The notes under the pieces were generated by a model, which was given only the letters and a program-made list of their open reading frames with translations, searched no databases and was not told where the DNA came from. Of a stretch of 59,503 bases of DNA, positions 46,988 through 59,246 are shown in pieces (position 1 is the stretch's first letter; each line of letters begins with the position of its first letter). This DNA is from Burkholderiales bacterium (GTDB taxonomy: Bacteria; Pseudomonadota; Gammaproteobacteria; Burkholderiales; Burkholderiaceae_C), in assembly GCA_003963075.1 (NCBI GenBank), contig RXJV01000076.1, forward strand, positions 1 through 59,503, read 5' to 3'. Position numbers and translations under genes: made by a program.

Positions 46988-48064
46988 ATGAGTTACACCA
47001 TCAGTGTGGGCGAGGCCATCGCCGAGCTGGACCGCTTCGACGCCATCCTCGATGTGCGCTCACCGGCCGAGTTCGCGGAAGACCACCTGCCCGGCGCCGA
47101 GAACTGGCCGGTGCTCGACGACGAGGAGCGCCGCATCGTCGGCACGCTCTACGCGCAGAACCCGCTGGAGGCCCGGCGCCTCGGCGCGGCCCTGGTGGCC
47201 CGCAACGTCGCCCGGCTGCTGGACGAACGCACCGGCGGCCGGCCAAAGACCTGGCGGCCGCTGGTCTACTGCTGGCGCGGCGGGCAGCGGTCGCTGTCGC
47301 TGCACTGGTTTCTCGGCCAGATCGGCTTCCGCTCCCGCCAGCTGGTCGGCGGCTACAAGGCCTACCGCAGCCGCGTACGCGACGATCTCGCCACGCTGCC
47401 GGCCCAGTTCGACTGGCAGGTGCTGTGCGGCCGCACCGGCAGCGGCAAGACACGGCTGCTGCAGGCCCTCGCGCGCGAAGGCGCCCAGGTGCTGGACCTG
47501 GAGGCGCTCGCCGCCCACCGCGGCTCGGTGCTCGGCGCCCTGCCCGACCTGGCCCAGCCCACGCAGAAATCCTTCGACAGCGCGCTTTGGGCCCGGCTGC
47601 GGCAGCTGTCGCCGGCACGGCCGGTGTATGTCGAGAGCGAGAGCCGCAAGATCGGCCGCATCGCGCTGCCCGAGGCCCTGCTCGCGGCGCTGCGCGGCGA
47701 ACGCAGCGGCTGCGTCTGGCTGGACATGCCCGATGCCGCGCGGGTCGAGCTGCTGCTGCAGGACTATGGCCACTTCGCCGCCGACCCCGAGCGCTTCTGC
47801 GCCGCGCTGGACGGCCTGGTCGAGCTGCGCGGCCGTGCCCGCGTCGAGGCCTGGCAGGCCCAGGCCCGCCAGGGCGACTGGGCCGGCGTGTTCGCGGCGC
47901 TGATGCGAGACCACTACGACCCGGGCTATGAGCGTTCGCTGCGGGGCCACTATCCGGCGCTGGCGCAGGCCTTCAGGCTCGCGCTGCCCGCGGCGGATGA
48001 TGAGACCCTGGCCCGCGCCGCACGCGACCTGCTGCGGGCCGACGCCCACCTCGCCCGGCGTTGA
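46988..48064 (+). CDS. mnmH: tRNA 2-selenouridine synthase
   Basis: Converts 2-thiouridine at the wobble base of some tRNAs to 2-selenouridine via a geranylated intermediate. The 358-residue product has an N-terminal rhodanese domain with the active Cys in LVYCWRGGQRS, and a C-terminal P-loop domain with Walker A GRTGSGKTRLLQ. It requires selenophosphate; the selD gene is not in this window. Confidence 0.94.
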   Translation: MSYTISVGEAIAELDRFDAILDVRSPAEFAEDHLPGAENWPVLDDEERRIVGTLYAQNPLEARRLGAALVARNVARLLDERTGGRPKTWRPLVYCWRGGQRSLSLHWFLGQIGFRSRQLVGGYKAYRSRVRDDLATLPAQFDWQVLCGRTGSGKTRLLQALAREGAQVLDLEALAAHRGSVLGALPDLAQPTQKSFDSALWARLRQLSPARPVYVESESRKIGRIALPEALLAALRGERSGCVWLDMPDAARVELLLQDYGHFAADPERFCAALDGLVELRGRARVEAWQAQARQGDWAGVFAALMRDHYDPGYERSLRGHYPALAQAFRLALPAADDETLARAARDLLRADAHLARR

Positions 48065-49207: not shown

Positions 49208-49827
49208 GCGACCTCAGCACACGCATCAGCCGCAGCCTTCGCCACAGCCGGCTCGAGGACGCCCAGGCCCTGCTGACCGGCACGCTGTTCGCTGCGCTGG
49301 GCGTGGCCCTGTTCAAGCAGGCCGGCATGCTCAGCGGCGGCACCGTCGGCCTGGCCTTCCTGGGCCATTACGCGAGCGGCTGGCCCTTTGGCCTGCTGTT
49401 CTTCGCGATCAACCTGCCCTTCTACGGCCTGGCCTGGCGGCGCATGGGCGCGGCCTTCACGGTCAAGACGGTGATCGCCGTGCTGCTGATGGCGGCGCTG
49501 TCGGAGGCGCTGCCGCACTGGCTGGGCATCAGCGCGATCAACCCTCTGTTCGCGGCACTGGGCGGTGGGCTGCTGATCGGTGCAGGCATGCTGATCCTGT
49601 TCCGCCATCGCGCCTCGCTCGGCGGGCTGAACGTGCTGGTGCTGTGGCTGCAGGAAACCCGCGGCTGGCGCGCCGGCATGCTGCAGGCGGGGCTGGACGC
49701 CGCCATCCTGCTGGCCGGCCTGCCCTGGGTGCCCTGGCCACGGGTGCTGCTGTCGCTGTTGGGCATGGCCGCCATCAACGCGGCGCTGGCCATCAACCAC
49801 CGACCCGGTCGCTACATGGCCACTTAG
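49204..49827 (+). CDS. YitT-family membrane protein
   Basis: A 207-residue membrane protein with about five to six segments. AQALLTGTLFAALGVALFKQ and GMLSGGTVGLAFLGHYASGW match the YitT_membrane family, as does LGGGLLIGAGMLILFRHRAS. Family function is not known; no C-terminal DUF2179 domain is present. Its end overlaps the convergent DUF3501 gene by 4 bases. Confidence 0.82.
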   Translation: MSDLSTRISRSLRHSRLEDAQALLTGTLFAALGVALFKQAGMLSGGTVGLAFLGHYASGWPFGLLFFAINLPFYGLAWRRMGAAFTVKTVIAVLLMAALSEALPHWLGISAINPLFAALGGGLLIGAGMLILFRHRASLGGLNVLVLWLQETRGWRAGMLQAGLDAAILLAGLPWVPWPRVLLSLLGMAAINAALAINHRPGRYMAT

Positions 49828-50402
49828 GCCAGGTCGCCGGCCAGGCTGGCCAGGGTCTCCGGCGCGATCTGAACATGGGCGGGATAGTGCCTGTGGTCGC
49901 AGCCCAGCTTGACCGCTGCGCCGGCCTTCACGGCCTGCCGCATCGGCGCGCTGAGTTCGAAGCGCACGAAATGCACGGCCGAGGTCTTCTCGTCGTTTTC
50001 GCGGTCCAGGTCCTCGTCGGCGATCGCGTAGACGCGCGGCTGGCCCTCGACCTCGATGAAGAGCCGGTCCTCGACGCCGATCAGCCGCGCCAGCTCGCGC
50101 CGGCGCTCGTTCGGGTCGGGGTATTCGATCAGCAGCGTGGCCTTCCAGTTCGTGCCGTCGGGCACGAGCGGCGCATAGGCATCGATCTCGGCCTGGATGC
50201 CGTCCTCTTCGAAGATCTTCTCGATGCGCAGCATCTCCTGGATCTGGTAGCGGATGGTGCGCTCGTCCTCGAACTGCAGGTTCAGATGCTCGCCCAGGCG
50301 CACGCTGCGCAGCCGGCGGTGAGCGACGATGGCCGGCTTCTCGGTCTTGCGAAAGCGCGCGTACGCTTCCAGCGTCATCAGGCTGTCGGGGGTGATGCTC
50401 AT
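49824..50402 (-). CDS. DUF3501 protein
   Basis: A 192-residue soluble protein starting MSITPDSLMTLEAYARFRKT, with RRLRSVRLGEHLNLQFEDER (here split) and a C-terminal VKLGCDHRHYPAHVQI. It is the regular partner of the two upstream genes, a CCG-domain Fe-S protein and rubrerythrin, in a conserved proteobacterial cluster. Role unknown; a function in oxidative stress handling is inferred from context. Confidence 0.85.
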   Translation of the reverse strand: MSITPDSLMTLEAYARFRKTEKPAIVAHRRLRSVRLGEHLNLQFEDERTIRYQIQEMLRIEKIFEEDGIQAEIDAYAPLVPDGTNWKATLLIEYPDPNERRRELARLIGVEDRLFIEVEGQPRVYAIADEDLDRENDEKTSAVHFVRFELSAPMRQAVKAGAAVKLGCDHRHYPAHVQIAPETLASLAGDLA

Positions 50403-51754
50403 GCGAGGAGTCCGTAGGCGGTTCGCAGCAAGGTGAGCGGGTGGGCCACTGTGGCCGACGCGCCGGTCAGCGCCATGCCCTGGGCGATGTGGTGCCCCGC
50501 GAGCGCGCAGTCGCTGGAGATGAAGTCCGGCCCGTCCTTGGCCATGGCCATGGCCTTGAACACCGGCTTGCCGATCTTCATCGCCACCGGATGGGTGGGC
50601 GTCTTCACGCCATAGGTGCCGGCATGGCCGGAACAGCGTTCAACGGTGTTGAGCTTCACCTCGACGCTCTGTCCGATCAGCTTGAACATCTCCTCGGTCT
50701 TGCGGCCGATCTTCTGCACCCGGCCGTGGCAAGGGATGTGGTAGCTGACCCGGCCCAGGGCCTGCTTGAAGTCGGTCTTCAACAGCCCGTCCTTGTGGCG
50801 GGCGATGAGGTATTCGAAGGGGTCCCACATCGCGTCCTGCACAAGCCTCACGTCCTCCTCGTCCGGGAACATCAACGGCAGTTCCTGCTTGAACATCAGC
50901 GTGCAACTCGGGATGGCCGACAGGATGGCGAAGCCGTCTCTGGCATAGGGCGCCAGCACGGCGATATTGGCCGACTTGTGCTTCTCGACGCTGTCCAGGT
51001 CACCCAGCTCCAGCTTGGGCATGCCGCAGCAGGCTTCCTTCTCGACGATCACATAGGGGATCGCGTTGTGCTCCAGCACCTTGAGCAGGTCGAAACCGAT
51101 GCCGGGTTCGTTGTAGTTGACATAGCAGGTGGAGAAGATGGCCACCTTGCCCGGTGTGCGCTCGCCATTGCTGACGACCTGAGCCTCAGACTTGGGCGCG
51201 CTCCAGCGGAAACGCTGGGGGGCCAGCGCGGGCAGCCAGGCCTCGGGGTGCACGCCGAGCTGGCGGTCCATCAGCCGCCGCGCCAGCTTGGTGCGGTTCA
51301 GCGCGTTGACCGCCTGCACCACGACCGGAATGCCGGCGAACTGGCCATGCACATCCGTCGACGCGAGGAAGCGCTCGCCGGCACTCACTTTGCCGCTGCG
51401 GAACTTGATCGCCTTGGCGCGCAGCATGGTGTGCGGGAAGTCCAGGTTCCACGCATGCGGCGGCACATAGGGGCATTTGGTCAGGTAGCAGAGGTCACAC
51501 AGATAGCACTGGTCGACGACCTTCCAGAAGTCAGCCTTGTCCACGCCATCCAGCTCGCCGGTCTTGCCCGCATCGACCAGGTCGAACAGGGTCGGGAAGC
51601 TCTGGCACAGGCTGACGCAGCGCCGGCAGCCGTGGCAGATGTCGAAGATGCGCTCCATCTCGTGGAGGCAGGCCGCTTCGTCGTAGAAGCCCGTGCTCTT
51701 CCAGTCCAGCGCGTGCCGCGTGGGCGCTTCGAGATTGCCTTCGCGAGTCATCAT
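50399..51754 (-). CDS. Heterodisulfide-reductase-like Fe-S protein (GlpC/CCG domains)
   Basis: An oxidoreductase subunit of 451 residues (450 from the second ATG). N-terminal ferredoxin-like clusters: ICHGCRRCVSLCQSFP and CYLCDLCYLTKCPYVPP. Two CCG domains follow: STCYVNYNEPGIGF with ACCGMPKLELGD, and CHGRVQKIG with CSGHAGTYGV. It lacks a FAD domain, so it resembles GlpC or HdrD and needs a redox partner, perhaps rubrerythrin. It overlaps the DUF3501 gene in ATGA. The ATG pair at 51754/51751 sits 1 base after a terminator T run, with no ribosome site. Confidence 0.88.
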   Translation of the reverse strand: MMTREGNLEAPTRHALDWKSTGFYDEAACLHEMERIFDICHGCRRCVSLCQSFPTLFDLVDAGKTGELDGVDKADFWKVVDQCYLCDLCYLTKCPYVPPHAWNLDFPHTMLRAKAIKFRSGKVSAGERFLASTDVHGQFAGIPVVVQAVNALNRTKLARRLMDRQLGVHPEAWLPALAPQRFRWSAPKSEAQVVSNGERTPGKVAIFSTCYVNYNEPGIGFDLLKVLEHNAIPYVIVEKEACCGMPKLELGDLDSVEKHKSANIAVLAPYARDGFAILSAIPSCTLMFKQELPLMFPDEEDVRLVQDAMWDPFEYLIARHKDGLLKTDFKQALGRVSYHIPCHGRVQKIGRKTEEMFKLIGQSVEVKLNTVERCSGHAGTYGVKTPTHPVAMKIGKPVFKAMAMAKDGPDFISSDCALAGHHIAQGMALTGASATVAHPLTLLRTAYGLLA

Positions 51755-51755
51755 C

Positions 51756-51781
51756 AAAAAGGGCCGCTGGCGGCGGCCCTT
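51756..51781 (-). terminator. Terminator/attenuator between rubrerythrin and Fe-S gene
   Basis: On the minus strand a perfect 9-bp stem AAGGGCCGC/GCGGCCCTT with a 5-base loop is followed by TTTTT. It lies 10 bases past the rubrerythrin stop, and the T run ends one base before the ATG of the Fe-S gene. So it may end the rubrerythrin transcript, or attenuate read-through into the Fe-S gene. Confidence 0.75.
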
Positions 51782-51791
51782 GCACAGGGAG

Positions 51792-52211
51792 TCAGTCGAC
51801 CAGCGCGTCAAGCGCCTTCTGGTAGCGGTTGGCATGGGAGCGCTCGGCCTTGGCCAGCGTCTCGAACCAGTCCGCGATCTCGTCGAAGCCCTCATCGCGC
51901 GCCGTCTTGGCCATGCCCGGGTACATGTCGGTGTACTCGTGGGTTTCGCCGGCGACCGCGGCCTTCAGGTTGTCGCGCGTGGCGCCAATCGGCAGGCCGG
52001 TGGCCGGGTCACCCACGGCCTCCAGGAACTCCAGGTGCCCGTGCGCATGACCGGTCTCACCCTCAGCGGTGGAGCGGAACAGCGCGGCCACATCGTTCTG
52101 GCCTTCGATGTCGGCCTTGTTTGCGAAGTAGAGGTAGCGGCGGTTGGCCTGAGACTCGCCCGCAAAGGCGTCCTTCAGGTTCTGCTCGGTCTTGCTTCCT
52201 TTCAAGCTCAT
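51792..52211 (-). CDS. Rubrerythrin, ferritin-like domain only
   Basis: A diiron peroxide-reducing protein of 139 residues. Ferritin-like ligands are seen in [45 protein letters not shown] and [13 protein letters not shown]. It lacks the C-terminal rubredoxin CxxC domain, so it belongs to the short rubrerythrins and must take electrons from another protein. GGAG stands before the ATG. First gene of the rubrerythrin-Fe-S-DUF3501 set. Confidence 0.93.
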
Positions 52212-53429: not shown

Positions 53430-53721
53430 GTCCGATCAACCCGAGATGGAGATCGGACCGATGAAGAAGCGACACACCGAGGAACAGATCATTGGGTTCC
53501 TGCGTGAGGCCGATGCTGGCCTGCCGGTCAAGGAGCTGTGCAGGAAGCATGGCTTCAGCGAGCCGAGCTACTACGCCTGGAAGGCCAAGTTCGGCGGCAT
53601 GAACGTGTCGGACGCACAGCGGCTGAAGACGCTGGAGGCGGAGAACAAGAAGCTCAAGAAGCTGCTGGCCAACTCGATGCTTGAGATCGACGCGATGCGC
53701 GAGGTGCTCAAGGGAAAGTGA
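53430..53721 (+). mobile_element. IS3-family element remnant
   Basis: Only an orfA is present; the expected larger orfB with the DDE catalytic residues is missing within the roughly 125 bases before the next gene's stop. The left edge may reach into the end of the truncated upstream gene. Extents are uncertain because no pair of terminal repeats could be identified. Confidence 0.6.
53461..53721 (+). CDS. IS3-family transposase OrfA
   Basis: An 86-residue DNA-binding transposase subunit: MKKRHTEEQIIGFLREADAG and VKELCRKHGFSEPSYYAWKA form the HTH, and LKTLEAENKKLKKLLANSML is the leucine-zipper-like helix used for dimerisation. The ATG at 53461 gives the usual MKKRHTEEQI start. In intact IS3 elements orfB overlaps its end by frameshift; here no orfB follows, so transposition is unlikely. 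Confidence 0.85.
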   Translation: MKKRHTEEQIIGFLREADAGLPVKELCRKHGFSEPSYYAWKAKFGGMNVSDAQRLKTLEAENKKLKKLLANSMLEIDAMREVLKGK

Positions 53722-53846: not shown

Positions 53847-54974
53847 TCAGTTGATCGTGCTGTCGACCATGGCCTGAAGCAATTCCGCCCGGCTCAGCTC
53901 CTTGCCCTGGAACCGCACGACGCCGAAGGTGTCGTCAATGAGGTAGTCGCCGTCCTTGTAGACGTGGACATGTATGCCGCGCTCCTGGGGCCGCTCGGCC
54001 GTCCAGAGCACGGCAGGCGTGGATGCCCAGACCTGGAACGGCAACCCCGCGTAATCGTCGAGGTTGACCTCTTTCGTGACGTCGACGTACTGGTTGGCAC
54101 GACTGAACTGGTCGTGGAGCGGCTTGAGGGGCGTCGATGCGATGGGCCCTTTGCTCTTGGTGTTGTCCCGCCCGCAGTGCCCGCACAAGTGCTTGACGTG
54201 CGGCTGCCTGGCGAAATCGCCCAGATCCAGGTGCGGGAAGCCGCAGTCGCGGCAGTTGATGCAGCCCATCGCCTTCCCGTGCTCGAGCGACAGAACGAAT
54301 TCCAGGGCCGACGGCGGGGTCAGGTGGACCTTGGTGATTTCGTCGTTGCCGAACAGGTTGTATTCGGCGTTGTAGTGCAGGGAGAGCGCCTTGAAATCCT
54401 GATCGATGACCTTGTCCTCACCCGGGTTCTGCCGCACGTGGACATGGATCTTGGGGCGCCGCGGCGCGGACTTCCCCTTGTGGCTAAAGGCCGGCGGCAT
54501 GGAGCACCAGATACCCACCTCGGCGTAGTCCTTGATCTTGATGTGGTGCGGATCGACCACGTAGGACATCGGCTGATCGTGATACGAGCAGTGGACCTTG
54601 CCGCTCGCCTCCGCATTGGCGATGTCGCCCAAGGTGCCCCAGTGCCGCTGGTGCACGCGACACCACCAGCGCTGCGCGCCGTTGCGAAACTTGCCCGCAT
54701 CGACGATGTCGCAGTCCAGCACCGCGTCGTCGCCTTCCTGGGCGGGGAAGCTGCCGATCAGATCTTCGCTGGAGACCGCGATGTTGCCGAGGGTGCGGCC
54801 ATACGACCAGCAGATTGCTTCACGGGTTTCCACGGGCTGGCCCAGCGGCTGCACCTGCTGCTCGTAGCCCAGCAACCGCTGCCCGGTCTTCCTGGCGGGC
54901 TTGACGGAAACATCCCAGTCAAAGCCCCAAAGCTCAATGCGGCCGCCAGCGCCGACCCGTCGCTCGATTTCCAT
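53847..54974 (-). CDS. Cys/His-rich protein with internal duplication, function unknown
   Basis: A 375-residue protein. Candidate zinc ligands: Cys105/His108, Cys129/His132, and a cluster CINCRDCGFPHLDLGDFARQ then PHVKHLCGHCGRDN (Cys238, 241, 244, 264, 267). Two related segments, 153-180 and 312-338, both have W-x-S-x-P followed by an IHVHV stretch (177-180 and 335-338), so the protein seems to hold a repeated beta domain with a zinc ribbon between. No signal peptide or membrane segment. No family was recognised. Divergent from the MOSC/ATL gene. Confidence 0.6.
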   Translation of the reverse strand: MEIERRVGAGGRIELWGFDWDVSVKPARKTGQRLLGYEQQVQPLGQPVETREAICWSYGRTLGNIAVSSEDLIGSFPAQEGDDAVLDCDIVDAGKFRNGAQRWWCRVHQRHWGTLGDIANAEASGKVHCSYHDQPMSYVVDPHHIKIKDYAEVGIWCSMPPAFSHKGKSAPRRPKIHVHVRQNPGEDKVIDQDFKALSLHYNAEYNLFGNDEITKVHLTPPSALEFVLSLEHGKAMGCINCRDCGFPHLDLGDFARQPHVKHLCGHCGRDNTKSKGPIASTPLKPLHDQFSRANQYVDVTKEVNLDDYAGLPFQVWASTPAVLWTAERPQERGIHVHVYKDGDYLIDDTFGVVRFQGKELSRAELLQAMVDSTIN

Positions 54975-55209: not shown

Positions 55210-55974
55210 ATGACCTACGCCACGCTGCGCGAGACCCACGCATCCAGCCTGACCCGTCACCCCGGCCAACGACCCGATGAGCTTGATTGGCGCCTGGCCG
55301 GCGAACTGAAGGCCATCTACAGCCGGGTAGGCAAGGAGCCTGCCCCACGGCGGATCCTGCGAGCCGAGACCATGGCGAACTACGGCATCGTGGGTGACCG
55401 GCACGCCTGTCCACATTCACCACGCCAGCTACTCATCGCCGGCGATCCCGCATATCAGCAGTTCGAGCTTCCGGAAGCGGCCCTGCGCGAGAACGTGCGT
55501 GTCAGCTTCTCGACCCTCGACCTGCGGTCAGGCGACCTCCTTCGCATCGGGCCCGACGTCGTGCTGTGGCTCACCTTCCACTGTGAGCCGTGCAGCCTCT
55601 TGGAGCGCCGGTGTCCGGGCACCATCAAGTCGATCGGCCATCACCGCGGCATGCTGGCGCGCGTGCTGCGCGGCGGCACGTTCACGGCGCGCGACGAGGT
55701 CTTCATCGCCAGGTCTTCGATACCGGCCATGAGTAACGACTGGCAGGTGCGTGTGCGTGGCGTGGCGAACGCCGTGCCAGACGGGCACTACATCATCTAC
55801 CGTCAGTTGGCAGAGATGGCCGGCGTCGCCAACGCGTATTGCCGCGCGTTTCCGAAGGTGCTGTCGAAGCTGCCACCCGACGTGGCCGGCCGGGTTCGAG
55901 GAGGCGCCAGCTCGCTGCCAGGCCCGCAATGGACTGGCGCAGAGCTCTACGACGTCAGCGAGCATTTCGCCTGA
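55210..55974 (+). CDS. MOSC domain protein with alkyltransferase-like C-terminal domain
   Basis: A 254-residue protein. Residues about 46-170 read as a MOSC domain: ANYGIVGDRHACPHSPRQLL is the conserved GDRH stretch, followed by ALRENVRVSFSTLDLRSGDL and the Cys pair FHCEPC (125, 128), typical sulfur-carrier Cys. Residues about 178-245 resemble the DNA-binding half of O6-alkylguanine transferases (VPDGHYIIYRQLAEMAGVAN), but the PCHR acceptor Cys is absent, as in ATL proteins. This domain pairing is unusual. Identity of the second domain is an inference. Confidence 0.65.
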   Translation: MTYATLRETHASSLTRHPGQRPDELDWRLAGELKAIYSRVGKEPAPRRILRAETMANYGIVGDRHACPHSPRQLLIAGDPAYQQFELPEAALRENVRVSFSTLDLRSGDLLRIGPDVVLWLTFHCEPCSLLERRCPGTIKSIGHHRGMLARVLRGGTFTARDEVFIARSSIPAMSNDWQVRVRGVANAVPDGHYIIYRQLAEMAGVANAYCRAFPKVLSKLPPDVAGRVRGGASSLPGPQWTGAELYDVSEHFA

Positions 55975-56005: not shown

Positions 56006-56419
56006 CTAGCGGGAGTAGCTCGCGCCGTCGACGTCAAAGCCCGCCGCGGATAGCAGCGTCCGCACGCCGGAGAACTCCTCGGGACCGCCGAAGAACGGAC
56101 CGTCAGGCTTGTGGTGGAGGAAGAAGGCACCCTGCAACAGCCCGCAGTGGACACAGGCGTTGGCCCAACTCACCTCGCCGACCGTCTTCGAGAAGAGCGG
56201 CTTGTAGTTCGGCGCCTTCGACGCGAGTCCAGCTTTCACGGCGGCCGGCAGGCTGCTGAGACTGAGTTCGTAGACAAAGGTGGCCGCCTCCAAGCGGTCG
56301 GGCTCTTCGTCGGGCTCGAACTCTTCGAGATCGGCAACCTGCAGGGCATGGACGGGCGTCTGCTTGCCGCACTTCCAGCATGAGATGTCTGCCGACACCA
56401 GCTCGATCGGCCCGAACAA
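56006..56419 (-). CDS. Small protein with two CxxC pairs (zinc-ribbon-like)
   Basis: A 137-residue protein with ADISCWKCGKQTPVHAL near the start and NACVHCGLLQGAFFLHHKP in the second half; four Cys in two CxxC pairs could hold one zinc. The remainder is mixed, with FEPDEEPDRLEAATFVYELS as an acidic linker. Start codon is TTG at 56419, no ATG is available, and a GTG 21 bases later is also possible. It begins 20 bases after the TcmP stop in the same direction and so may be the last gene of that operon. No family recognised. Confidence 0.55.
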   Translation of the reverse strand: MFGPIELVSADISCWKCGKQTPVHALQVADLEEFEPDEEPDRLEAATFVYELSLSSLPAAVKAGLASKAPNYKPLFSKTVGEVSWANACVHCGLLQGAFFLHHKPDGPFFGGPEEFSGVRTLLSAAGFDVDGASYSR

Positions 56420-56439: not shown

Positions 56440-57720
56440 TTATGCTCCGTCCACCTTGAACGAGAAGCTGAACGCCCCTTGGGGCGGCCGGCGCAAAACA
56501 TGCTCGGGCTTAAGATGCACGCGCGCGCTGGACGGTACGCCGTCGTCGCCCAGCACCTGAACCTGCTGATGCGCGCTCAGCCTGAGCAATGCCGTCTCGA
56601 CCATGTCGCGCGTGGCCGGCGTCGTGTTGATCAGCCGCATGAAGAACTGCTCGAAGCTGATGCCGTCGGGCACCTCGCTAAGGAGCCGGGGGATCTGCTC
56701 CAGCATGGTGTCTTGACTGACGGTGGCGGCCACGTCCGAGAAATCGAATCCAGTCTGCAGCTTGCCGGTGTCGTCCAGCTTGCCGATGTAGCCGGTGCTG
56801 AACATGTTGAAACCAGCGCCGCCGTAGTGGGCGAAGTGGTTGTGATGCTCCCAATGGGTCGACGCCATCACATCGCGGGCTTTCCAGTGCTGCGACAGGT
56901 GCAGCAGCCAGAAGTCGCCGAAACCCTGCTCGGGCCGAATGAAGAACGGTGTGTGGAACTTCGCCGTCGAGGCCCGCGTCACGTCCTCATACAGGTTGGC
57001 TTGCAATGCCACGCGCCACCACGGCGACTTCTTGAGCTCGTCGATCTCCGCCGCGGTCATCCCGCTGCGAATGCCGGTGGCGGCCGTGAACTGGCGCAGG
57101 TTCTTCGGATCGAGGAACTTGATCAGCGCATCTACGTAGAACGTCAGGATGACCTCGGCCTTGGCCAGCCTGCTGAAGATGTCGCTCAGGCACTGCATGG
57201 GCACGGCCGAGTAGCCGTACTGGTCGAGAACGAAGAGCGCCCGGCCTGATCTGATGCTGCGAGCCTCGCAACGCTTGATCACGGCATCGCTGTGGTCGGC
57301 GAACTGGCCATGGACCAGTCGGATCCGCTGGGAGGCCAAGGCTTGGCCATGGTTGCGTTGGACAAGCAAGTTGCGCAGGAATTCCAGCGCCGACGGACAT
57401 TCGTCGATGCAGATCAACTCGACGTCGATGTCGATGGGCTTGCGACGGTCCTGGCGCGTCATCACCAGGTACTTGGCCTCCTCGATGGCCTCAAGGATAA
57501 CCAGCGGCGATCCAGGCACTTCCCGGCCGTCCTCGTTGACGTAAAGGCCGCCGCCGCAGAAGCCGTCAACGATGGTCATCCTGATCTGTTCACGCTGCAG
57601 GCGCGAAAACAAGGTCAGGAAGTACTTGATGAGGTAGTTGCGAAGCAGCGCATGCTTGACTTCGCTATGGCGCTTCAGCAGCGGGGGCGTACTCCCCCAA
57701 ACCCAGTCGTAATGTGGCAT
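56440..57720 (-). CDS. tcmP: Three-Cys-motif partner protein TcmP
   Basis: Partner of the DUF5131 three-Cys protein next to it. The 426-residue product has methyltransferase-like landmarks: MTIVDGFCGGGLYV at residues 48-61 (motif I, Asp52), LICIDECPSALEFL at 102-115 (motif II) and ALFVLDQYGYSAVP at 161-174 (motif IV-like). They suggest a Rossmann fold that binds SAM or a nucleotide, but no target or reaction is known. The C-terminal half (PAQ-free, helical, ending FSFSFKVDGA) has no recognised domain. Starts 106 bases after the DUF5131 stop; a gap of this size weakens but does not rule out co-transcription. Confidence 0.82.
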   Translation of the reverse strand: MPHYDWVWGSTPPLLKRHSEVKHALLRNYLIKYFLTLFSRLQREQIRMTIVDGFCGGGLYVNEDGREVPGSPLVILEAIEEAKYLVMTRQDRRKPIDIDVELICIDECPSALEFLRNLLVQRNHGQALASQRIRLVHGQFADHSDAVIKRCEARSIRSGRALFVLDQYGYSAVPMQCLSDIFSRLAKAEVILTFYVDALIKFLDPKNLRQFTAATGIRSGMTAAEIDELKKSPWWRVALQANLYEDVTRASTAKFHTPFFIRPEQGFGDFWLLHLSQHWKARDVMASTHWEHHNHFAHYGGAGFNMFSTGYIGKLDDTGKLQTGFDFSDVAATVSQDTMLEQIPRLLSEVPDGISFEQFFMRLINTTPATRDMVETALLRLSAHQQVQVLGDDGVPSSARVHLKPEHVLRRPPQGAFSFSFKVDGA

Positions 57721-57826
57721 CGCGTGGCGCTGCTGCGCTCTGGTTCTCCCAGCACGCGAATGTGCACGCCCGCTAACGGAGCATCAAGATACATGTGGCG
57801 CGCCGCCGACAGCAGCGCGTTGCAGA

Positions 57827-58579
57827 TCAGGCGCACAACTGCACCGCTGCGGCCGGCATCTCGTCCCACGTGCGGCCGTTGAGCTCGCGGCCGTTGGCAG
57901 CCTTCGCCCGACGCTTGCCGTCGGCACCCCAACCACCCCATTGCTTGAAGAAGAAGGCAACCTCCTGCTCCTGGCATTGCTCACGCACCGACTCGACCCA
58001 TTCCATCTTCATGGGCCTGGCCTTCGGGCCGGACTCGCCGCCGACGATGACCCAATGGATGTCCTTGAGGTTCAGCTCGCCGACGTCCGACAGCAAGGGT
58101 TCCACCGAGAGGAACCGGATCCGAGCTGGCACGGTCCGCAGATGGTCGATCCGCGGCACGCCGTACTTCTTGTCCTCCACCGACACACCCAGCCAGGCGT
58201 TGTCGGGCACGGTGCGCGTGCGGAAAAAGCGCGCCATGCGAGCGGCACGCTTTGTCAGGATTTGGTAGGTGTGATGAGGGGTCTGCTCGATGACGGCGAA
58301 GACCTGCTCGATGTAGGCGTCCGGCACGCGGTCGTGGAACAGGTCCGACATCGAGTTGACGAAGTACACCGTGGGCTTCTTGCGCTTGAGCGGGTCGTTC
58401 AAGCGCTCAGGCAACAGCGTCAGCGCGAAGCCGTTCTCATAGCCGGGCGTGCCCATCGCATTGAGCCGCTTGGCCATGGTTTCGGCATAGCAGTTCTTGC
58501 ATCCCGGAGACAGCTTGGTGCACCCAACGGTCGGGTTCCAAGTCTGCTCCGTCCATTCGATCTTGCTGGTTGTCGTCAT
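57827..58579 (-). CDS. DUF5131 (phage Gp37/Gp68-like) three-Cys-motif protein
   Basis: A 250-residue protein with TWNPTVGCTKLSPGCKNCYA at the start: Cys20, Cys27 and Cys30 in a C-x6-C-x2-C pattern, which could hold an iron-sulfur cluster in a radical-SAM-like enzyme (inference). Other family landmarks: FVNSMSDLFHDRVPDAYIEQ, LTKRAARMARFF, WVIVGGESGPKARPMK and AFFFKQWGGWG. Reaction unknown. Its start overlaps the S24 repressor's stop (58576-58579), which makes it the first enzyme gene under that repressor's promoter. Confidence 0.88.
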   Translation of the reverse strand: MTTTSKIEWTEQTWNPTVGCTKLSPGCKNCYAETMAKRLNAMGTPGYENGFALTLLPERLNDPLKRKKPTVYFVNSMSDLFHDRVPDAYIEQVFAVIEQTPHHTYQILTKRAARMARFFRTRTVPDNAWLGVSVEDKKYGVPRIDHLRTVPARIRFLSVEPLLSDVGELNLKDIHWVIVGGESGPKARPMKMEWVESVREQCQEQEVAFFFKQWGGWGADGKRRAKAANGRELNGRTWDEMPAAAVQLCA

Positions 58580-59211
58580 CGTGCAGCTCCCTGCGTTGCA
58601 AGCTTAGCCCTCGGTGAGGGATTCGCTAGATTTCTGATGATCCCCTTCACCACGCCAAGGACATTGAATGTTCGCGTGGGGCGTCGGGGCATTAAGCCGG
58701 CCTGGTGCGGCACAAGACGCGCACCATGTCGGTCAACTTGCAATTCCTTGATGGTGTAGTCCCCATCGATCTCGGCGACGACGATGTCGCCCGGTACAGC
58801 CTGGCTGGCAGTCTCAACAACCGCAACGTCGCCGCTCAGGATGCCGGCATCGGCCATCGACTCACCCCTGACTTTGACGAACACGGTCTTCGACGGATGG
58901 GCCACGAGCAGCTGATCCAGCGTCTGCGCCTGGACCAGACCGGTGACGCTGTGATCGGCGCCGAAGCCGGCGCGCACCTCGTCTTCGCTGATCTCCAACG
59001 TGAAGAACTCTGCCCCTGGTGCGAGCCGCCCGCCAGACGACTTGCTGAGATGCCCGCTGTCAATGAGCCGCTGAGCCATCTTGTAGGCGGCGTTCTTGGC
59101 CTCGAAGCCCAAGGCCTTGGCGATCACGGCATAGGACGGAAGGCACCCTAGTCGCGCATAGAGATCGCGCAGCACGCGAAGGTGTCTCTGGTCGTTGTTG
59201 GGTCGGGCCAT
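58576..59211 (-). CDS. S24-family (UmuD/LexA-like) self-cleaving repressor
   Basis: A 211-residue repressor: N-terminal HTH (PSYAVIAKALGFEAKNAAYK) and a C-terminal S24 peptidase. Self-cleavage site Ala81-Gly82 in DEVRAGFGADHS; nucleophile Ser118 in VKVRGESMADAG; Lys155 in GDYTIKELQVD. LLVAHPSKTVFVK and FNVLGVVKGIIRNL resemble UmuD. All catalytic parts are present, so it should respond to RecA-ssDNA (DNA damage). Transcribed with the DUF5131 gene. Two dyads lie before it; it may regulate itself and the enzymes. Confidence 0.88.
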   Translation of the reverse strand: MARPNNDQRHLRVLRDLYARLGCLPSYAVIAKALGFEAKNAAYKMAQRLIDSGHLSKSSGGRLAPGAEFFTLEISEDEVRAGFGADHSVTGLVQAQTLDQLLVAHPSKTVFVKVRGESMADAGILSGDVAVVETASQAVPGDIVVAEIDGDYTIKELQVDRHGARLVPHQAGLMPRRPTRTFNVLGVVKGIIRNLANPSPRAKLATQGAAR

Positions 59212-59217
59212 GTCGCC

Positions 59218-59246
59218 ATATTAATGGACTTTCGTCCACTAATCAA
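59218..59246 (-). promoter_or_regulatory. Promoter of the S24/DUF5131/TcmP operon, probably leaderless
   Basis: Minus strand: TTGATT at 59246-59241, a 17-base spacer, then TAATAT at 59223-59218. The start site would fall 7 bases further, at 59211, the A of the ATG, so the mRNA is probably leaderless, like that of some phage repressors. The dyad at 59221-59242 fills the spacer, where a bound repressor would block polymerase. Confidence 0.7.
59221..59242. promoter_or_regulatory. Candidate operator 1
   Basis: Inverted repeat TTAATGGAC (59221-59229) and GTCCACTAA (59234-59242) around TTTC, with one mismatch per arm. It lies across the promoter spacer of the S24 repressor gene. Confidence 0.65.

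What the first reader, a model, noticed from the sequence alone, without database searches (positions are those of the whole stretch)
56440..59211. SOS-type repressor driving a DUF5131-TcmP pair: candidate undescribed inducible system
Minus-strand order is S24 repressor, DUF5131 (three Cys in C-x6-C-x2-C), TcmP (Rossmann methyltransferase-like motifs). Repressor and DUF5131 overlap in ATGA; TcmP follows after 106 bases. The DUF5131/TcmP pairing is known but has no assigned function. A repressor with a full UmuD/LexA self-cleavage apparatus would couple a possible radical-SAM/methyltransferase pair to DNA damage or phage attack. A modification, repair or defence role is inference.
Basis: partly seen in the sequence, partly recalled or inferred. 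Interest (0 to 1): 0.85.

Follow-up and report, generated by a model that had tools for sequence, protein, structure and literature searches.

The report
Damage-switch operon with two modification enzymes
A bacterial operon in which a self-cutting repressor of the kind used in DNA-damage responses appears to control two uncharacterised enzymes, a radical-SAM-like protein and a methyltransferase-like protein, probably as an on-demand nucleic-acid modification or phage-defence system.

Summary
On the minus strand lie a LexA/UmuD-type S24 repressor (58576-59211), DUF5131 (57827-58579, ATGA overlap) and TcmP (56440-57720, 106-base gap). The coupling is real but optional: 16 of 129 DUF5131 rows have an S24 gene within 1.1 kb upstream, 8 of 12 in the window's own clade. 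A second S24 type with an unrelated N-terminus, and divergent layouts, also occur. The 14 tested repressors with the window-type N-terminus all have a palindromic operator centred 15-21 bases before the start. The window's copy is the only close match in its 4.65-Mb assembly, so this looks like a local switch, not the global SOS regulon. Cleavage residues Ala81-Gly82, Ser118 and Lys155 are conserved. DUF5131 models as radical-SAM-like (TigE, spore photoproduct lyase, lipoyl synthase). TcmP models as an RlmJ-like methyltransferase with a C-terminal winged helix and invariant K22 and D166. The pair is already PADLOC defence candidate PDC-M30. In mycobacteria its apparent orthologues sit in a mitomycin-responsive recA cluster. 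Substrate, RecA dependence and defence are unproven.

The parts
58576..59211 (-). LexA/UmuD-type S24 repressor, 211 aa: N-terminal LexA-like winged helix (weak match) plus S24 self-cleavage domain
   Evidence: A81, G82, S118, K155 identical in 9 of 9 aligned
58966..58971 (-). predicted self-cleavage site Ala81-Gly82
   Evidence: aligned with UmuD Cys-Gly; invariant in 9 of 9
58858..58860 (-). predicted catalytic Ser118
58747..58749 (-). predicted catalytic Lys155
   Evidence: 1i4v alignment
59220..59243 (-). operator palindrome ATTAGTGGAC-GAAA-GTCCATTAAT
   Evidence: leave-one-out rank 1 in the 59.5-kb window
59218..59246 (-). promoter-like TTGATT - 17 - TAATAT, whose spacer is filled by the operator; 6 bases before the ATG, so probably a leaderless transcript
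   Evidence: 8 of 12 consensus matches; below the 9-of-12 threshold of the promoter scan, which found none
57827..58579 (-). DUF5131 (Gp37/Gp68 family), predicted radical-SAM-like enzyme, 250 aa
   Evidence: PF07505 E 1.1e-112; TIGR04471 radical SAM mobile pair A E 3.6e-27, below cut-off; model pLDDT 91.8; fold matches
58490..58522 (-). C20-x6-C27-x2-C30, candidate [4Fe-4S] ligands
   Evidence: C20, C27, C30 invariant in 41 of 41
56440..57720 (-). TcmP, RlmJ-like class I methyltransferase fold, 426 aa
   Evidence: TIGR04474 E 3.7e-60; model pLDDT 88.1; Foldseek best RlmJ E 5.3e-9; K22, D52, F54, G56, D166 invariant in 34 of 34
56539..56778 (-). C-terminal GMT-like winged-helix domain of TcmP (residues 315-394)
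   Evidence: PF22560 E 2.2e-7; weak match to penicillinase repressor E 0.037

Best explanation
A dedicated, damage-responsive switch drives a two-enzyme nucleic-acid modification system, most likely an anti-phage or anti-mobile-element device. At rest the S24 repressor sits on the single palindrome inside the promoter spacer and shuts off its own operon. When RecA-ssDNA filaments form (DNA damage, phage entry, foreign ssDNA), the repressor cuts itself at Ala81-Gly82 with Ser118/Lys155 and the operon comes on. DUF5131, a radical-SAM-type enzyme with a cluster on C20/C27/C30, and TcmP, an RlmJ-like AdoMet methyltransferase with a winged helix, then act together on DNA or RNA. Shown by sequence: layout, recurrence, operator, conserved residues. 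Predicted: the two folds. Inferred: RecA trigger, chemistry, nucleic-acid substrate, defence role.
For: Repressor: closest solved sequences are UmuD and LexA; A-G, Ser, Lys in 9 of 9 and, by eye, in the four more distant homologues whose sequence reaches past the Lys, L302-L305 (L306 is cut by its contig end before it). Wiring: S24 within 1.1 kb upstream of DUF5131 in 16 of 129 rows; the tree needs 8 label changes (6 forced by well-supported branches) against a shuffled mean of 15.3, 0 of 500 shuffles as low; co-directional, divergent and alternative-N-terminus forms. Operator: 14 of 14 tested, leave-one-out rank 1 in 13 of 13 loci, no other site over 1,365,016 bases (matrix trained on these sites), top site in 5 of 5 repressor homologues not used for training, one close match in the own assembly. 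Enzymes; RlmJ K18 and D164 are essential (PMC3814359, passages). Damage link elsewhere: an M. tuberculosis mitomycin cluster of differentially expressed genes is Rv2734, Rv2735c, recX, recA (PMC5057432, one passage); the same order DUF5131-TcmP-(gap of about 0.6 kb)-recA was seen in G645. Mobile/defence setting: plasmids (62 records), presence in 11 of 249 relatives, integrase, N6/N4 methylase and ResIII neighbours, PDC-M30; relatives of this repressor beside type I restriction genes and a DarG-like gene.
Against: 113 of 129 DUF5131 rows show no S24 gene within 1.1 kb upstream, 9 of these with under 700 bases of upstream sequence, and 0 of 11 plasmid regions do, so the switch is optional. In two of the divergent S24 loci (G490, G279) my profile finds DUF5131 but no TcmP in the held 10-11 kb, so the switch does not always come with the pair. 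The window promoter scores only 8 of 12 and the promoter scan calls none. No DUF5131 fold hit reaches E 0.001. TcmP against RlmJ by profile is weak (probability 16%, E 0.0016), and TcmP has D-Q-Y-G instead of the DPPY of RlmJ. Adjacency to recA held in 1 of 30 mycobacterial genomes, and the paper passage seen does not state the direction of change. Defence-like neighbours were counted without a control set.
Confidence: 0.55

Rival explanations
1. Inducible repair: DUF5131 is a radical-SAM DNA-lesion enzyme in the manner of spore photoproduct lyase, TcmP a DNA-guided partner, and the operon is an auxiliary SOS repair module rather than defence.
For: Spore photoproduct lyase is among the best DUF5131 fold matches, TMq up to 0.56. 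The apparent mycobacterial orthologues lie beside recX-recA and in a mitomycin-responsive cluster. One plasmid copy lies near an error-prone polymerase and another near an ATPase annotated for double-strand break repair.
Against: Patchy, plasmid- and viral-contig-borne distribution with varied neighbours, restriction genes among them. A methyltransferase partner is not expected for direct lesion reversal. A decayed second copy in G139 suggests dispensability.
Confidence: 0.27
2. The S24 protein is a neighbour of convenience: a mobile-element regulator (prophage or ICE type) that lies before the pair without functional meaning.
For: Most DUF5131 rows lack it. Of five further class-level homologues of the repressor, one (G829) has the pair beside it, three have no DUF5131 or TcmP in the held stretch, and one is cut by its contig end.
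Against: A 4-base overlap or gaps of 18-36 bases to DUF5131 in most co-directional forms, two N-terminal types and divergent layouts sharing the neighbourhood, and an operator only at this promoter.
Confidence: 0.1
3. Repressor with a UmuD-like side role: the cleaved S24 fragment itself acts in translesion synthesis and the enzymes are incidental.
For: The S24 domain is closest to UmuD (PRK10276 E 8.1e-21 but below its cut-off).
Against: It keeps a weakly LexA-like N-terminal domain and a cognate operator. No Y-family polymerase family was hit among the window ORFs scanned near the operon, though not every ORF was scanned.
Confidence: 0.04

Closest known systems
PADLOC candidate systems PDC-M30 and PDC-M41
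   Same: DUF5131 matches M30B and M41B at E about 1e-115; long TcmP matches M30A at 4.6e-20; one short TcmP beside a divergent S24 (L055) matches M41A at 6.8e-112
   Different: the repressor matches no PADLOC model; the short TcmP of L070 matches none either; no function was found for either candidate in the papers searched
LexA (TIGR00498)
   Same: N-terminal LexA-like domain plus S24 domain, A-G / Ser / Lys, palindromic operator, autorepression layout
   Different: 71.7 bits against a cut-off of 110.95; one local operator instead of a regulon; UmuD-like C-terminal domain
RlmJ, 23S rRNA m6A2030 methyltransferase
   Same: best structural match of TcmP; K, motif I D, PGSP and motif IV D in the same order
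   Different: no PF04378 hit; no room for RlmJ's helical subdomain between motif I and PGSP; D-Q-Y-G not DPPY; added winged helix
Spore photoproduct lyase, TigE and lipoyl synthase (radical SAM enzymes; TigE's class is recalled)
   Same: among the best structural matches of DUF5131, three conserved Cys
   Different: C-x6-C-x2-C spacing rather than the common C-x3-C-x2-C (recalled); no hit at E 0.001 or better
CapH/CapP- and ImmR/ImmA-type damage-responsive control of defence or mobile elements (recalled, no call)
   Same: local repressor inactivated by proteolysis under damage controls a mobile or defence operon
   Different: there a separate metallopeptidase cuts the repressor; here one protein carries the self-cleavage residues

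Membership tests
PDC-M30 (PADLOC candidate) | M30B (DUF5131) and M30A (TcmP) encoded side by side | tested here: met
   E 1.3e-115 and 4.6e-20, adjacent genes
PDC-M30 (PADLOC candidate) | anti-phage activity | not testable with these tools
   none
LexA equivalog TIGR00498 | score over curated cut-off | tested here: not met
   71.7 against 110.95 bits
LexA-type self-cleaving S24 repressors | A-G site, Ser and Lys conserved | tested here: met
   9 of 9, UmuD alignment
LexA-type self-cleaving S24 repressors | RecA-stimulated autoproteolysis | not testable with these tools
   none
SOS regulon member | control by the global LexA or by DNA damage | not tested
   only the local operator was examined
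UmuD (PRK10276) | score over cut-off and no DNA-binding domain | tested here: not met
   74.2 against 110 bits; weak N-terminal HTH_36 and LexA matches below cut-off
Radical SAM superfamily | three conserved Cys for a [4Fe-4S] cluster | tested here: met
   C20, C27, C30 in 41 of 41; the cluster itself was not testable
Radical SAM superfamily | radical SAM barrel fold | tested here: inconclusive
   TigE E 1.8e-3, spore photoproduct lyase probability up to 1.00 and TMq 0.56, no hit at E 0.001 or better; generic barrels also listed
Class I AdoMet methyltransferases | Rossmann methyltransferase fold with motif I and motif IV | tested here: met
   213 PDB matches at E 0.001 or better, led by RlmJ, the best 50 seen; D52, F54, G56, D166 in 34 of 34
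RlmJ family PF04378 | Pfam match and DPPY motif | tested here: not met
   no PF04378 hit; D-Q-Y-G at D166
TcmP TIGR04474 | score over cut-off | tested here: met
   204.1 against 53 bits

The most novel reading that the evidence does not exclude
An inducible two-step base-modification defence: TcmP, an RlmJ-like adenine-type methyltransferase without the helical subdomain and with a winged helix, marks or positions a base, and DUF5131 rebuilds it by radical chemistry, all under a portable LexA/UmuD-like switch with its own operator that mobile defence loci (this pair, type I restriction, a DarG-like gene) have adopted repeatedly to turn immunity on only when RecA filaments form.
Probability: 0.25. 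Interest if true: 0.87.

Novelty: new variant of a known kind. Interest (0 to 1): 0.62.

Why it matters
It gives a widespread orphan pair (the DUF5131 rows carry more than a dozen phylum labels) a concrete regulatory logic and a testable biochemistry. The pair could be switched on by deleting or cleaving one repressor, the operator is defined, and the models name the residues to mutate (C20/C27/C30; K22/D166; A81-G82/S118/K155). A dedicated self-cleaving switch on a candidate defence operon would show that some bacteria keep immunity off until DNA damage signals an attack. The mycobacterial recA-cluster link gives an independent hint of the same trigger.

Tried and rejected
Global SOS membership: one close operator match in the whole assembly, the other four places at 3 mismatches, with more hits for the reversed control pattern (39 per strand), argue for a local switch (the assembly is 95.65% complete). 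Phage cargo: one of 50,697 phage records holds a TcmP relative at E 1e-5 or better, although DUF5131 is common in viral contigs: of the best 80 held, 38 have TcmP and 4 an S24 hit by my profiles in the held stretch, the S24 directly beside TcmP in L219 and L227; those two were not followed up. The 137-aa ORF downstream (56006-56419) has no family over a cut-off and was found in no relative among the loci compared, so it is not counted as part. An internal promoter or terminator in the 106-base gap: none called. TcmP by sequence against solved structures: no useful hit; DUF5131: none. Literature (titles, abstract starts and a few passages only): three-Cys-motif partner 3 papers, DUF5131 0, TcmP and related names 396 papers of which 40 were listed and none is on function, PF07505, TIGR04474 and related terms 2 papers with unrelated titles, S24 with self-cleaving, repressor, defence, SOS and phage 0 papers. 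A first genome-contig scan by TcmP alone found nothing. An internal recX promoter in the mycobacterial recA operon is reported as not damage-inducible (PMC3062782, passages), so part of Rv2735c expression may be constitutive.

Rows dropped before counts: for the tree I left out two duplicate loci (L045, L048), the short copies of loci held elsewhere (among L001, L013-L028, L040), one DUF5131 piece scoring under 250 bits (the broken copy L066), and all mycobacterial search loci and viral loci. Its 16 S24 rows include one decayed copy (L036) and one S24 gene cut by a contig end (L084). L087, whose S24 gene lies 1.7 kb upstream, counts as none there. The neighbour tallies used 124 of 281 ORFs selected; many are probably spurious frames. 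One search used 30 of the 31 genomes with a match (G608 left out). Structure alignments used 41 (A3) and 34 (A4) chosen sequences. The hits held are the best 80 of capped lists.
Full report
What is there. The repressor (58576-59211) matches Peptidase_S24 at 1.4e-19, with weak LexA and HTH_36 matches below cut-off at its N-terminus, LexA at 6.1e-20 and UmuD at 8.1e-21, both below the curated cut-offs. DUF5131 (57827-58579) matches PF07505 at 1.1e-112, and TcmP (56440-57720) matches TIGR04474 at 3.7e-60. TcmP has a C-terminal winged-helix domain (PF22560). DUF5131 and TcmP also match PADLOC models PDC-M30B and PDC-M30A, so the pair is already on a list of defence candidates. The window is a whole contig that ends 292 bases upstream of the repressor.

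Is the coupling real. A TcmP search of 249 relatives found 11 genomes with a match, the own one included. Reading those loci and others showed the same S24-DUF5131-TcmP order in several. In Achromobacter sp. MYb9 (L070) and a Comamonadaceae bacterium (L071) the order is short TcmP, repressor, DUF5131, long TcmP. In G516 and G195 the repressor is divergent from a short TcmP followed by DUF5131; in G490 and G279 it is divergent from DUF5131 with no TcmP found by my profile in the held 10-11 kb. G829 adds a divergent TcmP-DUF5131. In G018, G033 and G311 the S24 domain is attached to an unrelated N-terminus, which I read as ribbon-helix-helix-like by eye only (Pfam sees only S24 in L041). On a tree of 129 DUF5131 rows, 16 have S24 within 1.1 kb upstream, 104 have none and 9 have too little upstream sequence; the label needs 8 changes (6 forced by well-supported branches) against a shuffled mean of 15.3, with 0 of 500 shuffles as low. 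The window's clade has 8 of 12. None of 11 plasmid regions has it. So the switch is an optional module that was joined to, or lost from, this neighbourhood several times.

The operator. Upstream of the repressor lies ATTAGTGGAC-GAAA-GTCCATTAAT. The 14 repressors tested with the window-type N-terminus all have a palindrome with the same core at nearly the same place, centred 15-21 bases before the start; each is better than random windows of its own locus at P 0.004 to 0.048 (L036 is a second copy in the genome of L035). A 20-base matrix built from 13 of them finds 14 sites in 1,365,016 bases, all at repressor starts. That result is circular for the positives, so I repeated it leave-one-out: rank 1 in 13 of 13 loci. 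In five further repressor homologues found by protein search only, the top site is again at the repressor start in 5 of 5, though one of these is weak (8.0 against 7.1 for the next). In the window's own assembly the pattern has one place with 0-1 mismatches and four with three. The palindrome lies between a TTGxxx element and a TAxxxT element 17 bases apart, 5 to 7 bases before the start codon, in 10 of 13 by my reading (12 of 12 consensus letters in L087, 8 of 12 in the window; the mean over 13 is 8.46 against 6.56 for letter shuffles, whose highest mean in 2000 is 7.38). The promoter tool, which asks for 9 of 12, calls none in the window. The short distance implies a leaderless message (inference). 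The three repressors with the other N-terminus share a different palindrome that ends just before their start; its P values are 0.10 to 0.11, so it rests on its conservation alone.

The enzymes. AlphaFold2 with 41 DUF5131 sequences gave pLDDT 91.8; the best Foldseek matches include the radical SAM enzymes TigE, spore photoproduct lyase and lipoyl synthase, none at E 0.001 or better, mixed with generic barrels. C20, C27 and C30 are invariant in 41 of 41. TcmP with 34 sequences gave pLDDT 88.1; the best match is RlmJ, the 23S rRNA adenine-N6 methyltransferase, at 5.3e-9, with 213 matches at 0.001 or better; nearly all of the 50 listed are methyltransferases or close fold relatives. Residues K22, D52, F54, G56 and D166 are invariant in 34 of 34. 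Profile comparison with 23 RlmJ sequences is weak (probability 16%, E 0.0016), but when forced it sets K22-H23 on K18-H19, motif I on motif I, PGSP on PGSP and D166 on the catalytic Asp, in order. K18 and D164 are essential in RlmJ (PMC3814359, passages read). TcmP has D-Q-Y-G for DPPY and no room for RlmJ's helical subdomain, so it may work like, but is not a member of, the RlmJ family.

Trigger and role. The repressor carries the cleavage residues of UmuD/LexA, which by established knowledge of that family respond to RecA-ssDNA. Independently, the M. [quoted passage not shown] the direction is not stated there), and Rv2735c is at least partly co-transcribed with recA (PMC3062782, passages). 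BCG_2748c is said to carry the three-Cys-motif partner domain (PMC7387457, one passage). recA adjacency held in 1 of 30 genomes; in the others the two lie on different contigs or over 25 kb apart. For defence speak the mobile and patchy setting, integrase, N6/N4 methylase and ResIII neighbours (7, 5 and 5 of 124 scanned ORFs; no control set), a TcmP gene listed directly after the Hna defence gene in a Sinorhizobium expression table (PMC12445080, one passage), and relatives of this repressor beside type I restriction genes and a DarG-like gene. For repair speak spore photoproduct lyase as a structural relative and the recA link. I put defence or modification at about two to one over repair.

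Verdict. The enzymes are predicted, not shown, to be radical-SAM-like and methyltransferase-like. Biological function remains open.

Noticed in passing
window 55210-55974 (+): 254-aa ORF with a MOSC domain (E 3.4e-6) and a below-cut-off match to the DNA-binding part of O6-alkylguanine transferases (E 0.015) at its C-terminus.
   Followed up: no
window 46988-48064 (+): Rhodanese domain followed by a weak P-loop-like stretch, as in tRNA 2-selenouridine synthases (family name recalled; domains).
   Followed up: no
window 49824-51895 (-): DUF3501 gene next to a CCG/4Fe-4S protein.
   Followed up: no
window 53446-53721 (+): HTH_Tnp_1 transposase ORF of IS3 OrfA type (IS type recalled) some 2.7 kb from the operon.
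   Followed up: no
window 53847-54974 (-) and 56006-56419 (-): Two ORFs with Cys pairs and no family over any cut-off; the 137-aa one starts with TTG just after TcmP.
   Followed up: partly
L156 (G000:C136): A second TcmP-family match in the same genome, with no DUF5131 beside it: the genome has one DUF5131 match, in the window.
   Followed up: partly
L036 (G139): A second, decayed copy of the operon in one genome with the same operator as the intact copy.
   Followed up: partly
L217-L296: DUF5131 is common in viral contigs; by my profiles TcmP was found in 38 of 80 held stretches and S24 in 4, beside TcmP in L219 and L227, so phages may carry DUF5131 without its partner.
   Followed up: partly
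L303, L304, L305: Repressor homologues with an operator of the same type (weak in L304) beside a DarG-like macrodomain gene and type I restriction genes: possibly a portable switch of defence loci.
   Followed up: partly
L031, L032, L041: S24 proteins with an unrelated N-terminus before DUF5131 share another palindrome that ends just before the start codon.
   Followed up: partly
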